Shown here piece after piece: positions 8,334 through 62,956 of a stretch of DNA of 64,000 nucleotides. Each line of letters opens with the position of its first letter. Within the stretch, counting starts at the first letter, position 1. A model generated the notes under the pieces. It had not been told where the DNA came from. It did not search any database and saw only the letters and a list, made by a program, of their open reading frames with translations. Source of the stretch: Telopea speciosissima (Eukaryota > Streptophyta > Magnoliopsida > Proteales > Proteaceae); assembly GCF_018873765.1 (NCBI RefSeq), contig NC_057925.1, forward strand, positions 57,796,970 through 57,860,969. Reading direction: 5' to 3'. The position numbers and the translations under genes were made by a program.

Positions 8334-9503
8334 TTACCTCTTTGCCAATCCAACAGCATTCCGGAGTGGGAGAAGGCTTCCAACATGAGTTATTGCCTCA
8401 AAACAGGGTGGAAGTCCTCGGATTCGAATATCCCTGAATTTTTTCTTCACAGGGTCATAGAAAACCAGACATTCACCTTTATACGACATCAAAAGTTCAC
8501 CATTTTTCATCAATCTTAAAGGTTTAAAATGGCTACTGTCTCTGCCCGAATCTTTCGATGAGATGACATATTCTTTAGTCCAAGACCACTTTATTCCATA
8601 TTCTTTCATTACCCATATCTCAAGCCGCCTATCGATTGAATAATCGAATAAACAGAGATGTTCCCCTAACACACCTAAATTCATTCTATCGCTCCGGCCA
8701 CCGAGGATGAAGTCTGGCGGTGGCGGAACAACTCGGAATTCTTCCTTACCCAAATCAAAAGATACAATCAGTTCTCTATACTCATCCGTCATCCAATGAA
8801 GAGCTCCATTCACGAATGCAGGCGATGATTTTCCACGAAGTGCATATGGCACATCTCCAATATGTCTCCATTTACCCAAACTAAGTGAGTACACTTCGCC
8901 TTCCAATTTAAAAGTCGAAGTGCCACTTCCACACCCAAGATCAACTGAATGGAACAACATCCTTACCACCTTAAACTCATTAGCCACCTCATCATAGCCA
9001 AAACCGAATACAATGTCAATATCAGTACGCTTATCAGGCTTCGGAAGCGAAATGTATTCCCCTGTAACAGGATTGCAGACAAATCGAGGACCATAATACA
9101 TTGGATCCGACAAACAGAGCAAGCCATTACAAGAACCCACAACATCAAACTCCTTCTTTGGAGAGGAAAACAGGGGATTAGCAAAAACAGCACGGCCATC
9201 AAGAGTATCATCAGGAGTATCATGTTGTAACAAGTAAAGCGGTGCATCAATGCAATACCTACCGTGAAGCAGAAGGCTGGGAGGAATATCACCTTGGGTT
9301 GCCCTATTATGGTGCATTTTGATAAAATGACGGATGTGAGTAATGCGACGCATATCCTTACACACGCTTCTGCACCTTGCGAGGGTCTTGATAGGTAATC
9401 GAGAAAGAATGTCGAATGCAACTTCCGAAGGGAGCTTCGACATCACTCCGATGTCCATTGGCTTCTCTATCTGTTCGTCCTCTTCTTTTTGGAGAATAGC
9501 CAT
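8334..9503 (-). CDS. F-box protein with F-box-associated domain (CPR1/CPR30-like)
   Basis: An uninterrupted 389-codon frame. Residues about 21-60 form an F-box (MSKLPSEVAFDILSRLPIKT, then LARCRSVCK), the surface that in this family binds SKP1 in SCF ubiquitin ligases. The remaining 320 or so residues are a beta-rich F-box-associated domain with the usual marks VVGSCNGLLCL (about 120), the NPVTGEYISLP block (about 143), FGFGYD, and WRHIGDVPYALRG. The target protein cannot be read from sequence. The start used is the first ATG before the F-box, but the frame is open much further upstream. The stop lies in AGG-TAA within the donor-like AG/GTAAGA, so a short extra exon could extend the C-terminus. 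Family assignment is firm; the CPR1/CPR30 likeness is by general form only. Confidence 0.85.
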   Translation of the reverse strand: MAILQKEEDEQIEKPMDIGVMSKLPSEVAFDILSRLPIKTLARCRSVCKDMRRITHIRHFIKMHHNRATQGDIPPSLLLHGRYCIDAPLYLLQHDTPDDTLDGRAVFANPLFSSPKKEFDVVGSCNGLLCLSDPMYYGPRFVCNPVTGEYISLPKPDKRTDIDIVFGFGYDEVANEFKVVRMLFHSVDLGCGSGTSTFKLEGEVYSLSLGKWRHIGDVPYALRGKSSPAFVNGALHWMTDEYRELIVSFDLGKEEFRVVPPPPDFILGGRSDRMNLGVLGEHLCLFDYSIDRRLEIWVMKEYGIKWSWTKEYVISSKDSGRDSSHFKPLRLMKNGELLMSYKGECLVFYDPVKKKFRDIRIRGLPPCFEAITHVGSLLPLRNAVGLAKR

Positions 9504-33346: not shown

Positions 33347-33928
33347 TCACTCCATCACTGCAACACCACCCACAGCCTTGAGCTTCTCTATAATATCATT
33401 TGCCTCCTCCTTGGTTACCCCTTGTTTCAATAAGATTGGTGCCTTCTCTACTAGGTCTTTAGCCTCCTTCAGTCCCAGACTGGTAAATGCTCTTACCTCC
33501 TTAATCACCTTGATCTTTGCTGCCGCATCAAACTTCTCTAATTTCACATCAAATGCTGTCTTCTCTGCCTTCTTCTCCTCAGCTTTTGCAGACCCACTTG
33601 CAGCTCCCTGAGAACCCAAATCCATGCCTTCTGTTGATATTGGCTGCATCTTGGGATGCCTAAGCTTGTCTCTAAGTGTAGGACCAATCTGCTTGAGTTC
33701 CTCAGGGGCTAGAGCAGCAATACGCTCCGCAAGCTGGAGGATCTTATCAGAAGGTGGGGGTTTGGGACCATAGGGATCATAAAAAGCAGGATACTTGTAC
33801 CTCTTAGGCTTGGCCTTAGGATCTCTGGGAACAAAATCAGGTTGGAATAGACGACATTGTAGTGGACCAGTTATTTTAGAAAGTGTGGGAGGGGCACGTA
33901 CAACTTTGAAAAATGCAAGGAGCTTCAT
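33347..33928 (-). CDS. Mitochondrial ribosomal protein bL12 (L7/L12)
   Basis: 193-residue protein of the large-subunit stalk, which in this family recruits translation factors. The start is the ATG at 33928 ([20 protein letters not shown]); the frame is open seven codons upstream but has no ATG there. Residues 1 to about 35 are basic and hydrophobic, as expected of a mitochondrial presequence. 57-95 is the N-terminal dimerisation part ([17 protein letters not shown]). About 96-121 is an Ala/Lys-rich hinge. 122-193 is the conserved C-terminal domain ([49 protein letters not shown]). The coding part is one exon. An acceptor (TGTTGCAG, exon from 34001) and a donor (ACA/GTAAGG at 34992/34991) indicate a leader intron of about 990 bp, with a 5' UTR exon near 34992-35120. 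The [11 protein letters not shown] linker suggests a mitochondrial rather than plastid protein. Confidence 0.9.
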
Positions 33929-35128
33929 GGCAGAGGCTGGTGAAAGCAAAGATTCACGAGATGAAAACAGCTGGGAGAGGGAGACTATTTAAACCACCAA
34001 CCTGCAACATTGAGTGCAAAACAAAGGCACTAGTTGTATATGTCACACTGTTTAACAATCAGTAAGTCCAGTTGGAGCTCTCTTTCCTACAAAAGAAAGG
34101 GGAAAAAATTAGAAAAAATGGGATACACGTTAACATAAGTTACATAACTAACTAACAAAAAACAAACAAAGCATTCTCCATTTTGAGGCATAAGAGCACC
34201 TTTTTAATTCATCCCTGAATATGAATGGACCATATCCTGTAAGCATAAGAAGCATAACACCCTCATCTAGAACTTAAAGAAAAATCCTAAAAAATGTGTC
34301 TAGTTTCTTTGGTATTTTCCACAGTATGTATGTTCAGGAAAAAACAAAGGTCCCAGAAACGTTCAGCCATTGTTCAGTTTGAGATAGGGGAAAATGAAAT
34401 AGTAATAATAAAAAAAAAGAATGCAAAGCTTTTCAAATGCAAAAGTTTAGGTTTTAAAATTTTCCATAGCATCAAATATTTGTCTATATATTTGCATGTA
34501 AATATCAAGTCTCCTGATTTCCACACATCCAATTAATTATCAAATTCTAATAATTCATATGTAAAAAATATCAGCAACACAAAGGAGGGAGGGGAAGAAG
34601 AGGATATTATCTATTGGATTATGATCTCAATTTCATAAGTTAAACAACCAAAATGACTGCAGAGACTATCATCAAGCATAAAAAAAATCAAGTTGAAGAC
34701 CTTAATTCAAACAAAGGACTGAAAGTAAAATGTTTAAAATCACAGATGCGGCACAGTGAGCATACTACAATAAAAGGACTGAAAACAAGAGCATACAATG
34801 AGTAGTGATATTCCTACGAAAGTAAATACAGTTAAAAACCAAATCAAAATGAACGCACTTTAAAAGTAAAAGCAAAATTCTGCTACTATGAATTATCAGA
34901 ATACAGCCTCACTAGTCACTACCCAAGATTACTCAGGGTAAATTCTAGGACCACTTTTTCTCCAAGCATGATGATAGTGAAATCCCTTACTGTATTGAAG
35001 AGCACATTGATCTGCTAGGGATGAGATCTCAGATACGATAAAGAGGAGAGGAAGATGGCGGAACAACAAAGGGACAAAATGCAGAGAGTCTCTGTTCAGG
35101 GAAGGAAGACCTTCCTTTCTCTTTCCTC

Positions 35129-40523: not shown

Positions 40524-42256
40524 TCACTTCCTGCCACAAGTTTTAAGGTAAACATAAACAGAAGGCACAGAAACAGAACTGTTAGTTCGAAACTAACTCA
40601 TTAGTTCAAATACAGGAGCATTTACCTAAATTTGGCCCTTGATCGCATCCTTTTGACAGGAATTTCAAGGCTTTCCACATTAGCCCGACTCTCCTCCTCA
40701 TTGGTTTGGGCATCTGATACCGGCTGTGAATCTGAAGACTTTGCATCATGCCCTCCATCTGAGACAGTTTCTTGGTTTGCCAAACTTGTGTTATTCTCAT
40801 CCTGCTTACCAGCTAGTGATTCTGAACCCTGAACCTTCACCTCTCTTCCTTCTTCCCAATTATCCTTGTCTCCTGGCTCCACTTTATCTCTTACAGCTTC
40901 ACAGCTCTCAATTTTTTGTTCACCAAGAACCTCAGGATCTTCTTCTTTATTGCTCCGAACTTCAGACGTTTCCTGGCTTCCATCACTTGCTTGCTTTGAA
41001 TCAAATCCTGTCTGATTTTTCCCATAACCAGGATCTTCAGATCCTTCCATAGTGATTTTTCCACCAGTTTTCTTCTTTTCAACTATTTCAGGAAGCACAT
41101 CAGCTTCCATGTCCTCTGAGTGCACAGTCTTCTCATCCTCAGCATTCCTTTTGACTTTTGGTTTAGACTTGCCCTTTTCTGCTGCCTTTGATGCTTTCTT
41201 TCTCATGATCTTTCCCTTCTTTTCAAGTGGTTTAACATCATTGACCTCAGTAGCGACCACTTTTGCAGACTCTCCACTTACCTCACTGCCATCGGAATCC
41301 AATTCTTTTTTACCAGGGTGAGGTTCAGCCTCATTGTGATGTTTCTGGGAACTAGCACCCACAACTTTGTCCATGTTGATTTCATCCATCACTATCTCCT
41401 GCTCAAATTTTTCACTTACTTTGTCATTAGCATCCAAAGCCAGATTTCCTTCGGTATCAGTATCTTTTCCACCTTGCAGCTTTGGATGCCTTTTTTTGGA
41501 AGCCTTTGAAGGTGTTCTCTCAATCCTAGCATACCTTTTCACTGGTTCAGAAGCCTCTTGCTTTTCCAAATTATGTGCTTCAGCAATTTGCACTCCCTCA
41601 GATTTTTTAGGATGTCCAATAACCTGTGTAACAGCATCATCTATAATACGTGAACCCTCATTTATAATGTCTCTACTCTCCCCACCATTATCTGGAATCT
41701 CACGATTAGGCTCCGATCTAGAAAATATAGTGAATCCCTCACTCGGCATAATTTCAAGCTCAAACCTCTCCGTCATCAAGTTTAACTCCTCTTTGTCACC
41801 ATCGTCATAGAAAACACGGTGGAGCTTCTTCTCATTGTCAAATGATTTTATCTTTCCCAAAAACCACCTTCTAGAATCAGGCCAGAAAACCTTAATTCTC
41901 TTCCCCACAATTCTCTCAAAATCATTCACACTCAGTAAAACCCTATGGAAGGAAGGTATATCCTTCCTTGGGCGGAGTCTAGACGACCCCAGTTCAGGTG
42001 ACTGGAAAAATGCCTCAGCTATTTCTTTGTCTGGGCCTCTTTTCCGTTTCTTAGCAACAGCTTTAGACATTTCAATTTTCTCAAACTCTTCAATCCCAGT
42101 CTCAATAACACCTGTTAGTTTCTTTTCCTCAGCTTTATCTACTGTTTTCCCTTCTATTTTTTCCATTTTGTATCCCCTTGTGTTCTCTTTGTTGCTGGTT
42201 TCCATAACTTGTGGTTTACCAGCAATGGATTTCTGTTTCTTCTTCCTATTTACCAT
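40524..42256 (-). CDS. Tudor-domain nuclear protein (PDS5-like Tudor, plant family)
   Basis: Main exon 42256-40626 and a terminal exon 40530-40524, giving about 545 residues. The large frame appears to stop at AGG-TAA, but that is the donor AG/GTAAAT. Splicing to GTGGCAG/GAAGTGA gives a C-terminus RAKFRK. Residues 116-170 form a Tudor domain (VGKRIKVFWPDSRRWFLGKI, then HRVFYDDGDKEELNL and ERFELEIM) like that of PDS5 and related plant chromatin proteins. 63-74 carries a nuclear signal (AKKRKRGPD). The rest is highly charged, Glu/Lys/Ser-rich and probably disordered. A role in chromatin or cohesion is inference from the domain. A 5' UTR exon likely ends at 42970 (GAGAG/GTATCT), with a leader intron between it and the start. 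Confidence 0.85.
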
Positions 42257-48047: not shown

Positions 48048-51000
48048 TTCCCTGTCTCTTTACATACATTAGCATAGCAGTGATAAATCAGATACATCCC
48101 CAACTCTCACCATGTACACCCTATACATGTCCTCCTTACTCTCTCTACAACCCCCAAACCTTGCCATCTCCCCCACAATCATGAAGTTTACTTTGTTTTT
48201 ATGTTCTTCGGTTTCAAATCTCTGGTAATTAAACTTGGATTTCCACAGACCATCTGTACATCTCCTCCTCAGGGAAGGGGATGGTCAAAGTCAGTAGTCC
48301 AGTGTCAGAGTTGTAGCTGAATTCGGTTTTTTGGGTACCCACTGTACACTTCAGGGGGCATTGGGATGAGTAGGCGCCAAACCGGCCACATCCCCTGACT
48401 TTGAGGACTATAGTTGCAGATGGCGACCTATTCTCACTGAGCAAACTTGGATGCTCAGGTGGGACTTCACCACCAAACAGTTCTGATTTCTTCTCAGTAT
48501 CCTTCCGAACTACAAATTGCTCCACAGACCCACCGGAGTTGAACATGTCGAGCAGGCCTATGGGTGCAAAGGAGATGTTGGCTGTGATTTCCTGCATCAC
48601 AAAGAGCAGGGGAGAGGATAGGAGGGAAATTATCTTTATGCTAGAATAGGCATGTATGCTGTTGGCCAAATAAGAATCTGTATCACCATGAACAGAAATA
48701 AAACTTTCAAAGCTGGGGATCATTAAGGGCTCACCTTGAGGGGACAGAAGTGGAAGAGCTCATACTCCAGGACCTTGAGTGTCACAGGCAGTGAAGCAAC
48801 TTTTGGTAGCCGAACCAACTCCCCTGCAGTGGCACCAATGTATCACATTAGTACACATTTGTCTCTCTACCACCATGAAACTTTTTTGTAGTATCACATA
48901 GTTGAGACTCACATCCAATAAGACTTTACTCACCTGATTTATGGGCATAGACAATTGTTTCACTATTCCATTCAGGACCAGCAACATGATCCATTACTTC
49001 AACATCAGTGGCGCGAACAGAGCCACTGAGGTTCCCAGGGGATGCATCGTGGATGCGTGCCTTCTTGGCAATCTTGCACCACCCAGCGCCTTGGCTGTTG
49101 AACACACCCACCACACCAGAGCATTTGTTTGTGTTCCATATTTTGAGCAAGCTGCGCATCTCATTTCCAAATTATATGTTCCAGAACATGCTCTTTAACT
49201 GCTGAGTCTTAAAGGAGATACTATGATTACTTTCATATCGATCACTAGACAAGAAGATGGAAATGGAGCAAAGAACCTGGTTCTATCCCTAGCAGGGTCC
49301 ACAAACAGGCAGTCGCGAGTGGGCCTTCCAGGGAGTAGGGCACGCAGCACAGACCCATCAGGAAGGACCAGCTTCTTCAAGAGCTCGAAGTTGTGGTTGC
49401 CTGGCTTATCACTGGTCAAGGCCAAACAAAAAAAAACATCATCCTCCAGTAAGACTCAACAGACTGAGAAGACTTCAATCCCAGCTTTGCAACCAAAACA
49501 GAAGCTAATTAAAATGCTTACGAGGAGGCAATTTGGGTGTTAGGTGTGAAAATTACCTGACATAAATAGCACATCCGCCAATGGCTCGAGCAGCAGCATG
49601 ATACTCTCCGGCTGGGTGTAGGCTCTGCAGAGTAGTTGTCAATCATATCTATCTTTGATTGTTGAAACTACTAGTGGCTTTCAACTACCAGTCAATTAGT
49701 GCAATTACAAAGCAAGACACCGATGATTACTTACGTGGAACATATCCCAGTCGGGTTGCATGAATTCGCCAAGGAAAAGAGTGTTGTATGCCACCGAAGC
49801 AATGTGGATGGTGTGAGATGCCGGGTCCCTGGGGTAGAAATCATCAGAAGCTCTCACCACGGCTGTCTGCTGGGCACTGTAAATTCCATCGGTGTTGTGG
49901 CACATGCAAGCAATGCAGCCATTGTCGGGGAAGTTGTGAGCAATAGAGGTTTCAAGGGCCTGGTGGTAGGCACGGGTGAGTGCAACACGACCACCATGGC
50001 CTGCTCCAAGGGTCTCAATGATGTTCTGGACGTCGACCTTAACTCCATCGATCCCACAGGAGGCAAGGTAGGCATGAAGCTCATTGTAGAGGTTAAACAC
50101 CTTCTTTGGGTTAAGAAGCCCAAGACCGTGCACGGCAAGGGTGTCTATGACAGTGTCTGGCTGGTTCCCTAATACTCCTGGTGACTGAACTGGGTATGCC
50201 AATGCAGTGTCGTAGTGTTCCATGCCAGCAGCAGCCGGTTTCACCCCACCCCAATAACCGGCAAGAGCATGCTAGACGTATACAAATCTGTACAATATAA
50301 CAAGTAGATTACACAAATTAATCAAGTTAGATGAGTTGATTCAGTTAAAAGATATCTACATTTATTTTTATGCTACAATCTTTTGCATGTAGAACCTCAC
50401 TCCCATTGCCTCATACAATTGGTGAGCCCCATGAATGCTTCTTAGTTCCTTAGTGCGTTTGGGCAAGTATTTGAAGAGGGTGGGTTTTGTTTCAGTTAAT
50501 TATAAACACCCAATCAGTTCATTAATTGGAATGAGGAAAGTAAATGAGGACGATGGACCACTTACTTCACATTGTGATTTTGCTTGGCTTCGTCTATCAC
50601 GCTTTTTAGACCTAGCAAATGGTCGTTCTTGCTTTCCTTTTGGAACTTCGCATTTTCTTCTATTCCGGTGAGTCTGCTAGCGAATCTATTACGGATCAAT
50701 TCAATTGAAAAAAAATAAAAATAAAATCAGAGCCAGTCAAAATCTATAGAAGCAATATATTTGAAGTGCCATCTGATCTGATGATGATGAAGTAATTCAT
50801 ACCAGGAGAAAGGGAGAAATATTTTACTGTGCTTCTTCTTGGACAACGCTGTTGGTATCCTTCACCTCGTTACCAATCTGTTGCCAACCATCATCGATAA
50901 TCAAGAAACGAGGAGGCGCCCCACCCTCAGACAGGCTGCAAAAGAAAACTTAGTTTAATTAGTAATCTCTCCTCAGTGTACACTACTGTCTCTCTCCCCT

Positions 51001-51482
51001 CTTCTTTAGATATTATGGAAGAGGAAGAAAAACAACCTTCTCAGGCCTTCTTCGACGCCCTCAGCTGTGACGTCTGTATAGAAAGCATCCAATGTGCACC
51101 AGCCAAACCAGTCAAGGAAAGAAGGTAACTGCATCACCATAAACCGGAAAAGAGACCACAAAAATCATTTTGAATGTGAAGGTCATGCTTCCAAGAATTA
51201 AATGAAACTTACCCTTTTCTTCTCCCTGTGGAGGAAAGTTTGCATATGTTTTTCAATGGCCCTGTTTTCACAAGAAAACAAGCGAATGGATAGTGTCTAT
51301 CATCCATTATCCCCACAATTTCTGCGTTAGTTGTAGGGGCTGGGAAACTCCCCACTCAGAACGTTTATAGAAACTCTCTTTCAAGATCTTCCCTTCAAGG
51401 ACACGAGGATTTCCTCTGTTTCTTATTCCAAATTTCAAAAAAGAGAAGAAAGAGGGACTTACATTACAGCTTGGTTGATGAC

Positions 51483-51839
51483 TGTTGAGAAGTACTGTTC
51501 ACGTGAACAGTGATTTGGTTGATATGTGTATCTTCTATTTTCCTAGTCCTAGTTGGAGTCTTAGTATCTAATTATATCAAGTTCTAATTCTACTGAGAGT
51601 TATTAGTCTTAGTTTCAATTTGAGTTGTTAGTTCTAGTTCTTTTCCTATTATAACTTGGAATTCTATCATGATTAAGAATTCCTAATTTGATTAGGAGTT
51701 CCCTTTTCTATTTGTAATTTCCTCTCTATTATAAATAGAGGGGCTTTCCTATCAATAAAGACAAGAAGTTATTATTCTCTCATTCTCTCTTTTTTTCTCT
51801 TCTCTCAAGTTACTGGTTACAAGTCTTAGGTTTTCTACA
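51483..51839 (+). repeat. Element C 5' LTR
   Basis: 357 bp, with a TATA-like ATTATAAATAGAGG near 51728 and AATAAAG downstream of it. This is the usual promoter and polyadenylation layout of a short Copia LTR. Confidence 0.85.
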
Positions 51840-53559
51840 TGGTATCAGAGCTAGGCAACCAGTGACTGATTCTCTCCAAGATTGCCGGTTTGAGAGTCGT
51901 TTCAAGGTTCTCCGATTTATGGAGAAACCCTAGTTCATAAAAAAAGGAGAACTAGGGTTTCGTATTGGTTTCTTCTTCTAGTTGTTTCAGCACCGCATGC
52001 CATCATTCTTGGTCTGCATCTGCTGTTACTCTAGGGTTTTTTGGAGCTTCGAATCTGCTATCGTTTTCTACTGCTGCCATGTTCGGATTTTCCATGGTTA
52101 TCATAAACTGTTGCTCGAGTTTACTTCTGAGTCGAAGATTACTGATTTTATTCACTAGTTCCGATCAAATTTGCAGTCGATAGTTGAGGAATATAAATTT
52201 GCTGCTGAAATTCCAGGTTACTTGTTATTTCCTTCGATTTTACTGATAGGGCTCTGGTTCTGCTGAATCCAAGATTGCTACCTCAAGTCGATGCTTTGCC
52301 ACTGCTGATTCTTCGAATCCACCTCTTTTCTGCCTCTGGCTGTCGCTGCTATGGTTATAGTATTTACTGGATCGAAGGATTGGTCAATGGCTGCATCGAT
52401 TCTGCCCAATTTTTTGAATCAGTTCTATCCAACAACTGGGAGATTGTAGATTGGAGTTTTTTTGCACATCGGTTCTTCTTTTTTGAAGATCGATCAAGTC
52501 TCCCCTTCTGGAAATCCCTGCTTGGTTCTTTTGAATGCCATGAAATTGATGCTTTGTTCTTGGTTCATCGATATATTGCGTTGATCTGCTGGAGAAACCA
52601 GATACTGCAATCTGACCTTGATTTTATTCTCTATTGAATGTGACTTTGATTTGGAGTAGCGAAGAAATCTCCCTGTTTGCTATCGAATTGAACTACTAGA
52701 GCCGTCAGAAGAGATATTGGTATGGTCGATTCTCAAGTTTCCGCCTCTGGTTCACGGTGGAGATGGGAGACCGCTGCTATTCTTCAAATCTCAGGTTTCC
52801 TTTTCCGCTGGATTTGCTGGTTCTGTTGAATCGTAAGAAAGGAGATAACATCATTCTCTATGATTTTTTTATTTTATTTTAACCTAATTTTCCCATATTA
52901 CCCCCATCTTATGTCACTATACTCATATCACGTTAGCTCTTGTTGCCTCCCCCTTCCTCACGTTTCCTTTATCTTTTCCTTTTAAGTTTTAATTTATTAG
53001 GTATTTAATGCTACTAACCTACTACCTAGTACCTTACCATTTATTATTGTCCATCCTTTTTATGATTATTTACATCTTGCCATTAAGAGTTTCCTCATTC
53101 CAAGTATATCCCCCATCTATAAATCCAATTCCCTACATGACCCATTACTTTCTTATTTACCAAGGGCCCCTTGCAAAATTCTGCTTATTTACAAAACTAC
53201 CATCCCTTATTCCACTTTATGTTATTTGCAATTTTGCCATTCCTCTATTTGACTATCCAATTGACCCTTGAAAATTCTAGTTTATTACCAGTTTATCCTT
53301 AGGCTTGGATTGTATTTAAAAGTGAATTTTCATCAAATTACAGTCATGCCATCCTTTTTTTTTTCCAACACCGTTCCCTTTCAATAATGCTAATTCCCTT
53401 CATATCCCAAAACATACATTTGGTATTTACCCATAACCTTTGGAAACTGCTGGTAAATTACAATTTTGCCATTCCTTCTTTTTTACTTACCCATAGCACC
53501 TTTGGAAAATTCTGAAATATTATGTTTTTGCCCTATCTCTTACATCATCTCTATTATGT

Positions 53560-53717
53560 CCACGTGTACTACACGTGAGGAGGGGATTATGTACAGTACA
53601 CCTGCAGACATTGTAGAAGCAGAACTTGCAAGAACACTTGGTGCAAAGTATAGACGATTAGAGTTTTCACCATTGCCAATGGGTATCTACTTTGTTATTG
53701 GGTTGAGTCTGCCGTAA
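53560..53717 (+). mobile_element. Short coding-like stretch inside element C
   Basis: A stretch containing PADIVEAELARTLGAKYRRL has protein-like composition, in contrast to the AT-rich surroundings. I cannot assign it to a retroelement domain or to a host gene. It ends at a purine tract (GTAAGGGGGAGATTG). Confidence 0.3.
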
Positions 53718-54103
53718 GGGGGAGATTGAAGTATTGAAATATTAAAGATATTTGGTTGTTGCCTATTTGAGGACTTTCAGTTGGGTTGATACAGTATTTT
53801 TTCCGCTGCTTGATTCAGTTTGTTTTCGCTACTTGCTGCTCTAGTTATTTCACTTTAAGATTCTAAGTCACTATGACAATCTGAGATTCATCACTAGATA
53901 GCTATTGAAGATCGTTGAAAGCTGTCTTTTTTGGAAGACATTCCAGTCCCGATTTGCTGATCATGTCTGTCTAAGTTTTGAAGATCTATTTTTTTAAGTT
54001 CTTGAAGGTTTATTTGGGAACTGCATTCATATGTCAAGTTGGATTCTACTACAACTTAATTTTTTTTTATTTTGTTCAAGTTGGGCATTAGTACCTTGTA
54101 TGC

Positions 54104-54207
54104 ACCAACTTGAGGGGGAGTGTTAGCATTATTAGGAGTTCTTTTTTCTTTAGTTCAAGCTGGATTTTCTTTATTTATTTATTTATATAATCCAGCTTGA
54201 GGGGGAG
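54104..54207 (+). other. Repeated polypurine tracts of element C
   Basis: CAACTTGAGGGGGAGTGTTAG (split at 54104-54124) and CAGCTTGAGGGGGAG (54193-54207) are near-copies. Only the second abuts the LTR. A third purine tract lies at about 53714-53726. Confidence 0.6.
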
Positions 54208-54553
54208 TGTTGAGAAGTACTATTCACATGACACTGTTCACGTGAACAGTGATTTGGTTGATATGTGTATCTTCTATTTTCCTAGTCCTAGTTAGAGTTC
54301 TAGTTTTTAATTATGTCAAGTCCTAATTCTACTGTGAGTTGCTAGTCATAGTTTCAGTTTGAGTTGTTAGTTCTAGTTCTTTTCCTATTGTAACTTGAAA
54401 TCCTATCATGATTAGAAATTTTCTATTTGTAATTTTCCCTCTATTATAAATAGAGAGGCTTTCCTATCAATAAAAACAACAAGTTATTATTCTCTCATTC
54501 TCTCTTTTTTCTCTTTTCTCAAGTTATTGGTTACAGGTTCTAGGTTTTCTACA
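54208..54553 (+). repeat. Element C 3' LTR
   Basis: 346 bp, aligned to the left LTR throughout. It carries a short extra block near its start (GACACTGTTCACGTGAACAG, partly repeating the preceding TTCACATG). Confidence 0.85.
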
Positions 54554-55848
54554 ATAACTTTGAAAGGATTAGTCCCAGCATGCATATAGACCATGTGAAG
54601 TCCTTGGTTGGTCCGAACAGCATTGTCTCCTGCAAAATCAACCACAGCACAAACGAAAAACCCAATCGTTTTGGTTCTTCCGAACTCCACCTTTTACTTT
54701 GTTTTCCAATCCAAATCCTATAAGCTTCATAAATTTTGACTCATTGTATGATTGATTGATTGATTGATTTCTCCAACTTGAATTGTGTTTCCATGACAGA
54801 AAGCTCCGACCCCCCAAAATTCGAACCGTACATTTCCGTAAGAGGTAATTTACTTACCACTCTCAAGGCAAATCTCTAACTCATTCTTCTCGTTGCCTTG
54901 AAGAACAGCACGGAACTGGCCTTCAAGGATAGGAAGAAAGACAGTGTAGACAGTTGGTGTGTCCCCTTCATTGGCTTCATCAGCGTTGCCTTCTTTGCTC
55001 TCGATGAGCAAGAATTGGGTCTCCAGGGGAACATCCTTCCCACAAGTTCCCATTCTCTGTGTCATCCACCATAGCTTGAACCGGAAACAACATATGAAAC
55101 GAAGACCCCTGTTGAAGCAAAGCAATCAAAATGCGCTTGAAAAAGCTAGTAATGGCGTAATAATCAAATTGTACAGTGATTGAACTCACTCAAATATACC
55201 CAAGGGGAAAACGTGGAGGCTTTTTCTAGCAGTCGCCGTTGCACCTATGAAGGCACCTGCAACGAGCCCCTCGGCGGTCCCGGGTGTCAGCACAATATTG
55301 TCGGGCAAATTCGTCAGTATAGTTTTCCCAAGAACGACTAAGTTTCCATCGACGATGGAGATTTTTGGAGTCACAGTCATCTTCGATATATTCTTACTAT
55401 ACACAATAAAGCAATAACAACAATATCAATCACCTCGTGATCCATCAAAAAATAAGCTGAAGCAATTCTTGCTAACATTTCTACCACCCCAAAGAAACAA
55501 AAAACAAAGAAAGACCTGTTTGAAGCAGAAAAAAACAAGATTACTTAAAGCAATACACCCTGCATATCAAGTTTGGAATCAAACTACAAGAAACCGATAA
55601 TATACCCAACAAAATCTTCGTAAACCCTCAAATAAAACTCACCTGAAAATCATCAGTCGGCGAAGTAAGAGTTGTCGAGGTCGAATAAGAAAGAGAGGGA
55701 AGCAACAAATTCGAAAAACAGAAACGAAAGATGAACTCCAAAAATCACAATATACCAAATGCACAGAACGAACTAAGAAACGCTGGACCGACTATGTCCA
55801 TTTTATAAACCGGAACCGCTAAACATTGGGCTGTCTTATTATTCTTAT

Positions 55849-59454: not shown

Positions 59455-62956
<3,502 letters not shown>

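What the first reader, a model, noticed from the sequence alone, without database searches (positions are those of the whole stretch)
50270..54553. Galactosyltransferase-like gene with two independent lesions but otherwise intact exons
Thirteen exons keep frame, splice sites and both catalytic Asp motifs. Yet a 3-kb LTR element splits exon 3, and a conserved Trp codon before HALAGYW is TAG (50272-50270). By LTR divergence the insertion is not new, so I would expect more decay. Possible readings: a null allele in an otherwise functional population, a duplicate kept conserved until recently, or transcripts that avoid the element. The alternative acceptor after GTCTAG loses frame, so the TAG is not removed by simple re-splicing.
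Basis: partly seen in the sequence, partly recalled or inferred. Interest (0 to 1): 0.7.

Follow-up and report, generated by a model that had tools for sequence, protein, structure and literature searches.

The report
LTR-disrupted alkaline alpha-galactosidase pseudogene
A plant sugar-enzyme gene has been knocked out by a jumping element, a stop codon and a damaged binding site, while an intact sister copy sits elsewhere on the same chromosome, so this looks like an ordinary, fairly young dead duplicate.

Summary
A 13-exon Raffinose_syn (alkaline alpha-galactosidase type) gene lies on the minus strand, 55380-48229: 12 GT-AG introns, 775 codons in one frame. A 3071-bp non-coding LTR element (51483-54553, TSD ATGAC/ATAAC) splits exon 3. 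A third lesion was missed: Trp207 to Leu (51092-51090). Both positions align with sugar-contacting Trp307 and Trp211 of AtAkaGal3. An intact paralogue lies 49 Mb away (86.5% identity).

The "too intact for its age" puzzle mostly dissolves. Window dN/dS is raised (0.29 against 0.12). LTR divergence (K 0.088) is a poor clock: 22 of 27 polarised changes are C>T/G>A, against 32 of 120 in the exons. On the other change types about 0.8 stops and 3 frameshifts are expected (by hand); 1 and 0 are seen, so the unbroken frame stays borderline (P 0.02-0.05). Best reading: a duplicate under relaxed constraint, inactivated fairly recently. Fixation, transcription and splicing around the element could not be tested.

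The parts
48229..55380 (-). Raffinose_syn / alkaline alpha-galactosidase-like pseudogene, 13 exons
   Evidence: exon model; Pfam; PDB relative AtAkaGal3
55190..55380 (-). exon 1 with ATG
54858..55108 (-). exon 2, carries FRFKLWW (WW-box region)
54554..54629 (-). exon 3, 5' part, ends in one TSD copy
51463..51482 (-). exon 3, 3' part, begins with the other TSD copy
51483..54553 (+). non-coding LTR element, antisense to the gene, splitting exon 3
51483..51839 (+). 5' LTR
54208..54553 (+). 3' LTR
51840..51851 (+). putative primer-binding site TGGTATCAGAGC (initiator-Met-tRNA type, recalled)
   Evidence: sequence
51037..51128 (-). exon 5; codon 207 (51092-51090) reads Leu where relatives have Trp
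50272..50274 (-). in-frame TAG at codon 306, aligned with galactose-contacting Trp307 of AtAkaGal3
49735..50287 (-). exon 8, holds KVDV and RASDD catalytic motifs
48229..48591 (-). exon 13 with terminal TAA

Best explanation
This is a duplicate of an alkaline alpha-galactosidase/SIP-type GH36 gene. It evolved under relaxed purifying selection and was then inactivated, fairly recently, by insertion of a mosaic non-coding copia-type LTR element into exon 3, plus a stop codon and loss of an active-site Trp. Translation of the assembled locus would end 21 codons inside the element, giving 194 residues and no catalytic domain. The intact paralogue L044 presumably keeps the enzyme function. Shown: the lesions, the intact paralogue, the raised dN/dS, the C>T bias of the LTRs. 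Inferred: order of the lesions, age, methylation as the cause of the bias, and loss of function in the living plant.
For: Lesions. Intact paralogue, 13 of 13 exons and no internal stop. Raised window dN/dS. 29 against 14 replacements at sites invariant in the other three genes (binomial P 0.03). A neutral segment of zero length fits worse (lnL -8249.80 against -8244.49). LTR changes 22 of 27 C>T/G>A; by other change types the copy is not distinguishable in age from 25 sampled family LTRs (P 0.39). One stop agrees with expectation (0.9-3.3 at neutral lengths 0.012-0.044).
Against: No frameshift in 2.3 kb. With indel rates calibrated on L045 (12 non-3n gaps per about 96 neutral changes) and introns (17 per 130 mismatches), 3-4 are expected even at the younger age (P 0.02-0.05) and 9-13 at the ages from missense load or raw LTR divergence. 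The codon model cannot separate abrupt loss from long relaxation (lnL -8244.49 and -8244.26). Window against L044 omega alone was not significant on four genes (P 0.32); polarised changes are 55 N: 65 S in the window gene and 27 N: 48 S in L044 (difference not tested). Outgroups are saturated (dS about 2) and the place of L045 in the tree is uncertain (20, 14, 16 informative sites).
Confidence: 0.78

Rival explanations
1. The element and TAG are a null allele still segregating in the species, with functional alleles at the same locus.
For: The reading frame is otherwise whole; zero frameshifts fits young lesions.
Against: Trp207Leu and doubled unique replacements suggest decay along the lineage, not one fresh allele. 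Raw LTR K of 0.088 is old for a segregating insertion. No second copy of the locus among scored candidates, though a collapsed assembly would hide one.
Confidence: 0.13
2. The raw LTR age is right and the exons stayed under selection after insertion because the element was spliced out like an intron; the TAG came later.
For: One frame-keeping donor/acceptor pair exists among 4 donors by 3 acceptors: donor in the left TSD copy (54558), exon resuming in the LTR at 51494, net +4 residues. Of 200 shuffled elements 11 gave any such pair. Zero frameshifts at the raw LTR age is very unlikely.
Against: Both sites score near the bottom of real sites (4.4 and 4.7; medians 8.6 and 9.0). 11 of 200 is weak, and the site model rests on 48 introns that include the window's own. 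Replacement rate rose and Trp207Leu hits an active-site position. LTR divergence is C>T-dominated.
Confidence: 0.06
3. The TAG, and perhaps Trp207Leu, are assembly errors; only the element is real. (Overlaps the main reading, since the element alone truncates the protein.)
For: No reads were available to check; single-base errors occur in assemblies (recalled).
Against: Two separate codon lesions and a raised replacement rate over the gene.
Confidence: 0.06

Closest known systems
AtAkaGal3 (Arabidopsis alkaline alpha-galactosidase; PDB 7exf, 7exg and others, titled probable galactinol--sucrose galactosyltransferase 6)
   Same: Same Raffinose_syn/GH36 architecture; KxD nucleophile and RxxDD acid/base motifs kept.
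   Different: The window gene has TAG at the Trp307 position, Leu at the Trp211 position and an LTR element in exon 3.
Paralogue L044 (G000:C10:8.93 Mb)
   Same: 13 exons, same phases, 86.5% protein identity over 773 residues.
   Different: Intact, no element, Trp at both positions, omega 0.11.
Decayed copy L045 (G000:C10:8.90 Mb)
   Same: Same subfamily, also broken.
   Different: 12 frameshifting gaps and 3 in-frame stops in 1261 aligned exon bases, several exons not found in the 9-kb locus: far more decay.
Non-autonomous copia-type (LARD-like, label recalled) LTR elements of this genome
   Same: 5' LTR 92-95% alike to the 39 other scored places, 3' LTR 82-93%; same PBS type in many sampled copies; no long ORF.
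   Different: A mosaic: its three closest full-length internal relatives (93-94% over about 2331 bp) have LTRs that match only 140-145 bp of the window LTRs; its LTR pair is more diverged than the 8 sampled pairs.

Membership tests
Raffinose_syn / GH36 alkaline alpha-galactosidase (SIP) family | Pfam PF05691 above gathering score | tested here: met
   206.5 and 668.6 bits against cut-off 20 for two pieces
Raffinose_syn / GH36 alkaline alpha-galactosidase (SIP) family | KxD nucleophile and RASDD acid/base motifs | tested here: met
   KVDV 384, RASDD 446; roles from PMC9912918 passages
Raffinose_syn / GH36 alkaline alpha-galactosidase (SIP) family | Sugar-contacting Trp at AtAkaGal3 positions 307 and 211 | tested here: not met
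   TAG and Leu: descended from the family but not a working member
Raffinose_syn / GH36 alkaline alpha-galactosidase (SIP) family | Enzyme activity on raffinose or galactinol | not testable with these tools
   needs an assay
Unprocessed (duplicated) pseudogene | Introns kept, disabling lesions, intact paralogue | tested here: met
Unprocessed (duplicated) pseudogene | No functional product | not testable with these tools
   no RNA or protein data
Non-autonomous LTR retrotransposon | Two LTRs with TG..CA ends, TSD, PBS, polypurine tract | tested here: met
   (TSD 4 of 5; PBS and tract read by eye)
Non-autonomous LTR retrotransposon | No coding capacity | tested here: met
   longest interior ORF 120 aa; these ORFs were not searched against protein families

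The most novel reading that the evidence does not exclude
The LTR element worked for a time as a new intron in exon 3, with a donor in the target-site duplication and an acceptor in the LTR (+4 residues), keeping the gene under selection after insertion until the later TAG.
Probability: 0.05. Interest if true: 0.5.

Novelty: new member of a known kind. Interest (0 to 1): 0.17.

Why it matters
It is one more duplicated gene being lost, caught early. The wider point is a caution: LTR divergence taken from C>T-prone elements can overstate age and make ordinary pseudogenes look paradoxically intact. If the element was ever spliced out, it would be a case of a retrotransposon becoming an intron.

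Tried and rejected
Chimeric LTR pair as the whole explanation of K: in the FastTree tree the two window LTRs are not sisters, but the strong split there comes from misaligned leading columns. Without the first 36 columns each LTR's partner is the most distant of 26. The private changes (15 + 12) equal all 27 pair differences, which suggests no shared derived state; chimerism is neither shown nor excluded. The 14-bp and 24-bp LTR indels lie at short repeats; the 14-bp state also differs within two other pairs (C9:15.17, C1:0.65), so I gave them no weight.

Simple omission of exon 3 is no rescue: 91 nt is not a multiple of three (hand count). Candidate splice sites were limited to exon 3 plus 500 nt of each end of the element and to scores at or above the third-lowest real site; all 4 by 3 pairs were tried.

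Rfam had no match at gathering scores in the window. Species: assembly size and contig count resemble Telopea speciosissima from recall only; a paper search did not confirm it (listing seen). LTR-age inflation in print: two searches (listings, 2 of 2 and 10 of 65 papers seen) and passages of PMC8547701, which mention deamination of methylated cytosines in maize TEs; I saw no statement on inflated LTR ages. PMC9912918 was found (listing) and read in passages. The four-gene free-omega fit gave unusable values on saturated branches and was set aside.

Rows dropped before counts: 8 of 33 extracted LTRs (both ends at C11:13.05, C4:2.38, C8:8.43, C6:66.96) because under 330 bp matched; 25 family LTRs remained. 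Seven further fetched LTR loci (L055, L057-L059, L067, L072, L074) duplicate places already in the 33. L045 was used only where aligned (404 codons). L047 and L049-L052 were modelled but left out of the codon alignment as distant or incomplete. Columns before 36 of the LTR alignment were left out.

Full report
What is there. The window lies at G000:C10:57796970-57860969 of an 823-Mb assembly in 1287 contigs. On the minus strand 13 exons (55380-48229) give one frame of 2328 nt with one internal stop. Two pieces of the product match Raffinose_syn (PF05691). In the PDB search the only matches at E 0.001 or better were two sequences, the AtAkaGal3 entries. An LTR element of 3071 bp sits in exon 3, antisense, with 5-bp target duplications differing at one base. 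Reading exon 3 on into the element gives a stop after 194 residues in all (sum by hand).

A third lesion. Codon 207, in FGWCTWDAFY, reads Leu. The six paralogues whose exon 5 could be modelled and the Arabidopsis enzyme have Trp. By the alignments (offsets counted by hand) codon 306 corresponds to Trp307 and codon 207 to Trp211 of AtAkaGal3. Passages of PMC9912918 say that Trp307 contacts galactose at subsite -1 (though not in the galactinol complex) and that Trp211 helps hold glucose at +2 through water. Both catalytic Asp motifs remain.

Paralogues. An intact 13-exon copy (L044) lies at C10:8.93 Mb, 86.5% identical over 773 residues. A decayed copy (L045) lies about 30 kb from it, with 12 frameshifting gaps and 3 stops in 1261 aligned bases. 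DNA and protein searches showed no second near-identical copy of the window gene (only best candidates are scored).

Constraint. A codon-likelihood script of my own on four paralogues gave window omega 0.25 against 0.121 for the rest (P 0.006) and below 1 (P 0.005), but with saturated outgroups, and window against L044 alone was not significant (P 0.32). With L045 added: window 0.286, L044 0.112, rest 0.122; one omega lnL -8249.80, window free -8244.26, window fixed at 1 -8247.62 (one topology). A model with a constrained part and a neutral end gives a neutral length of 0.023-0.030 over four topologies, with a support interval of roughly 0.012-0.049 interpolated. The two models fit equally, so abrupt loss and long relaxation cannot be told apart. 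Polarised changes: window 120 (55 N, 65 S), L044 75 (27 N, 48 S); the window gene gained more of both kinds. Which lineage L045 joins is unclear by site counts, though the pairing with L044 fits best.

Is it too intact? Indel calibration: L045 gives 12 frameshifts per about 96 neutral changes, introns 17 per 130 mismatches, both near 0.13. At half the LTR divergence (0.044) about 13 frameshifts and 3.3 stops are expected; at 0.03, 8.7 and 2.3; at 0.012, 3.5 and 0.9. Seen: 0 and 1. With half that indel rate the chance of no frameshift is 0.002, 0.015 and 0.19.

Why the LTR age misleads. Against 25 other LTRs of the family, the two window LTRs carry 27 private changes, 22 of them C>T or G>A. The other LTRs have 51 of 93 (Fisher P 0.014), and the window exons 32 of 120 (P 2e-7). 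Counting only other change types, the window copy is not distinguishable from its family (5 of 644 against 42 of 8275 sites, P 0.39), whereas its C>T/G>A load is far higher (22 of 644 against 51 of 8275, P 4e-9). Dividing 5 of 644 by the exon share of such changes (0.73) gives about 0.011 neutral changes per site (Poisson range about 0.003-0.025, by hand): about 25 mutations, 0.8 stops, 3 frameshifts (P of none about 0.05); at 0.014 the P is 0.017. That is borderline. Caveats: the exon spectrum mostly reflects time before the insertion and under selection; the sampled LTRs were top hits to the window LTRs or chosen pairs, which favours little-mutated copies; methylation was not measured.

Element. 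It is a mosaic of a high-copy non-coding family (1722-2296 first-look candidates, 40 scored per search). Three full-length internal relatives at 93-94% have LTRs matching only 140-145 bp of the window LTRs, while its 5' LTR matches other copies at 92-95% and its 3' LTR at 82-93%. Eight other LTR pairs have K 0 to 0.036 over the same columns; the window pair has 0.0945.

Could it be spliced out? One frame-keeping pair of weak sites exists; 11 of 200 shuffled elements have at least one. Suggestive at best. Even then the TAG would stop translation at codon 310.

Verdict. An ordinary duplicated pseudogene, fairly young, with a real but mostly explained excess of intactness. Whether it is fixed, transcribed, or was ever spliced around the element needs reads and other individuals.

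Noticed in passing
L045 (G000:C10:8897500-8906500): Heavily decayed copy near the intact paralogue, with one exon piece in inverted orientation and several exons not found; useful as a neutral yardstick.
   Followed up: yes
window 51483-54553: The element is a mosaic of LTR and internal sequence from different subfamilies of a high-copy family.
   Followed up: partly
window 51036-50936, 50827-50686 and 49276-49152: Introns 5, 6 and 10 have weak splice sites (donors 3.8, 3.4, 4.4; acceptors 4.3 and 3.3 for introns 6 and 10); the intact paralogue also has non-consensus donors for introns 5 and 10.
   Followed up: partly
L050 (G000:C10:60630500-60637500): A further broken Raffinose_syn-like fragment with stops, about 2.8 Mb from the window gene.
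   Followed up: no
window 8334-9503, 33347-33949, 40622-42256, 62381-62956 (minus): ORFs with F-box, ribosomal L7/L12 C-terminal, PTM/DIR17 Tudor and protein kinase domains; 6 of the 8 ORFs of 170 aa or more were scanned, 4 matched.
   Followed up: no
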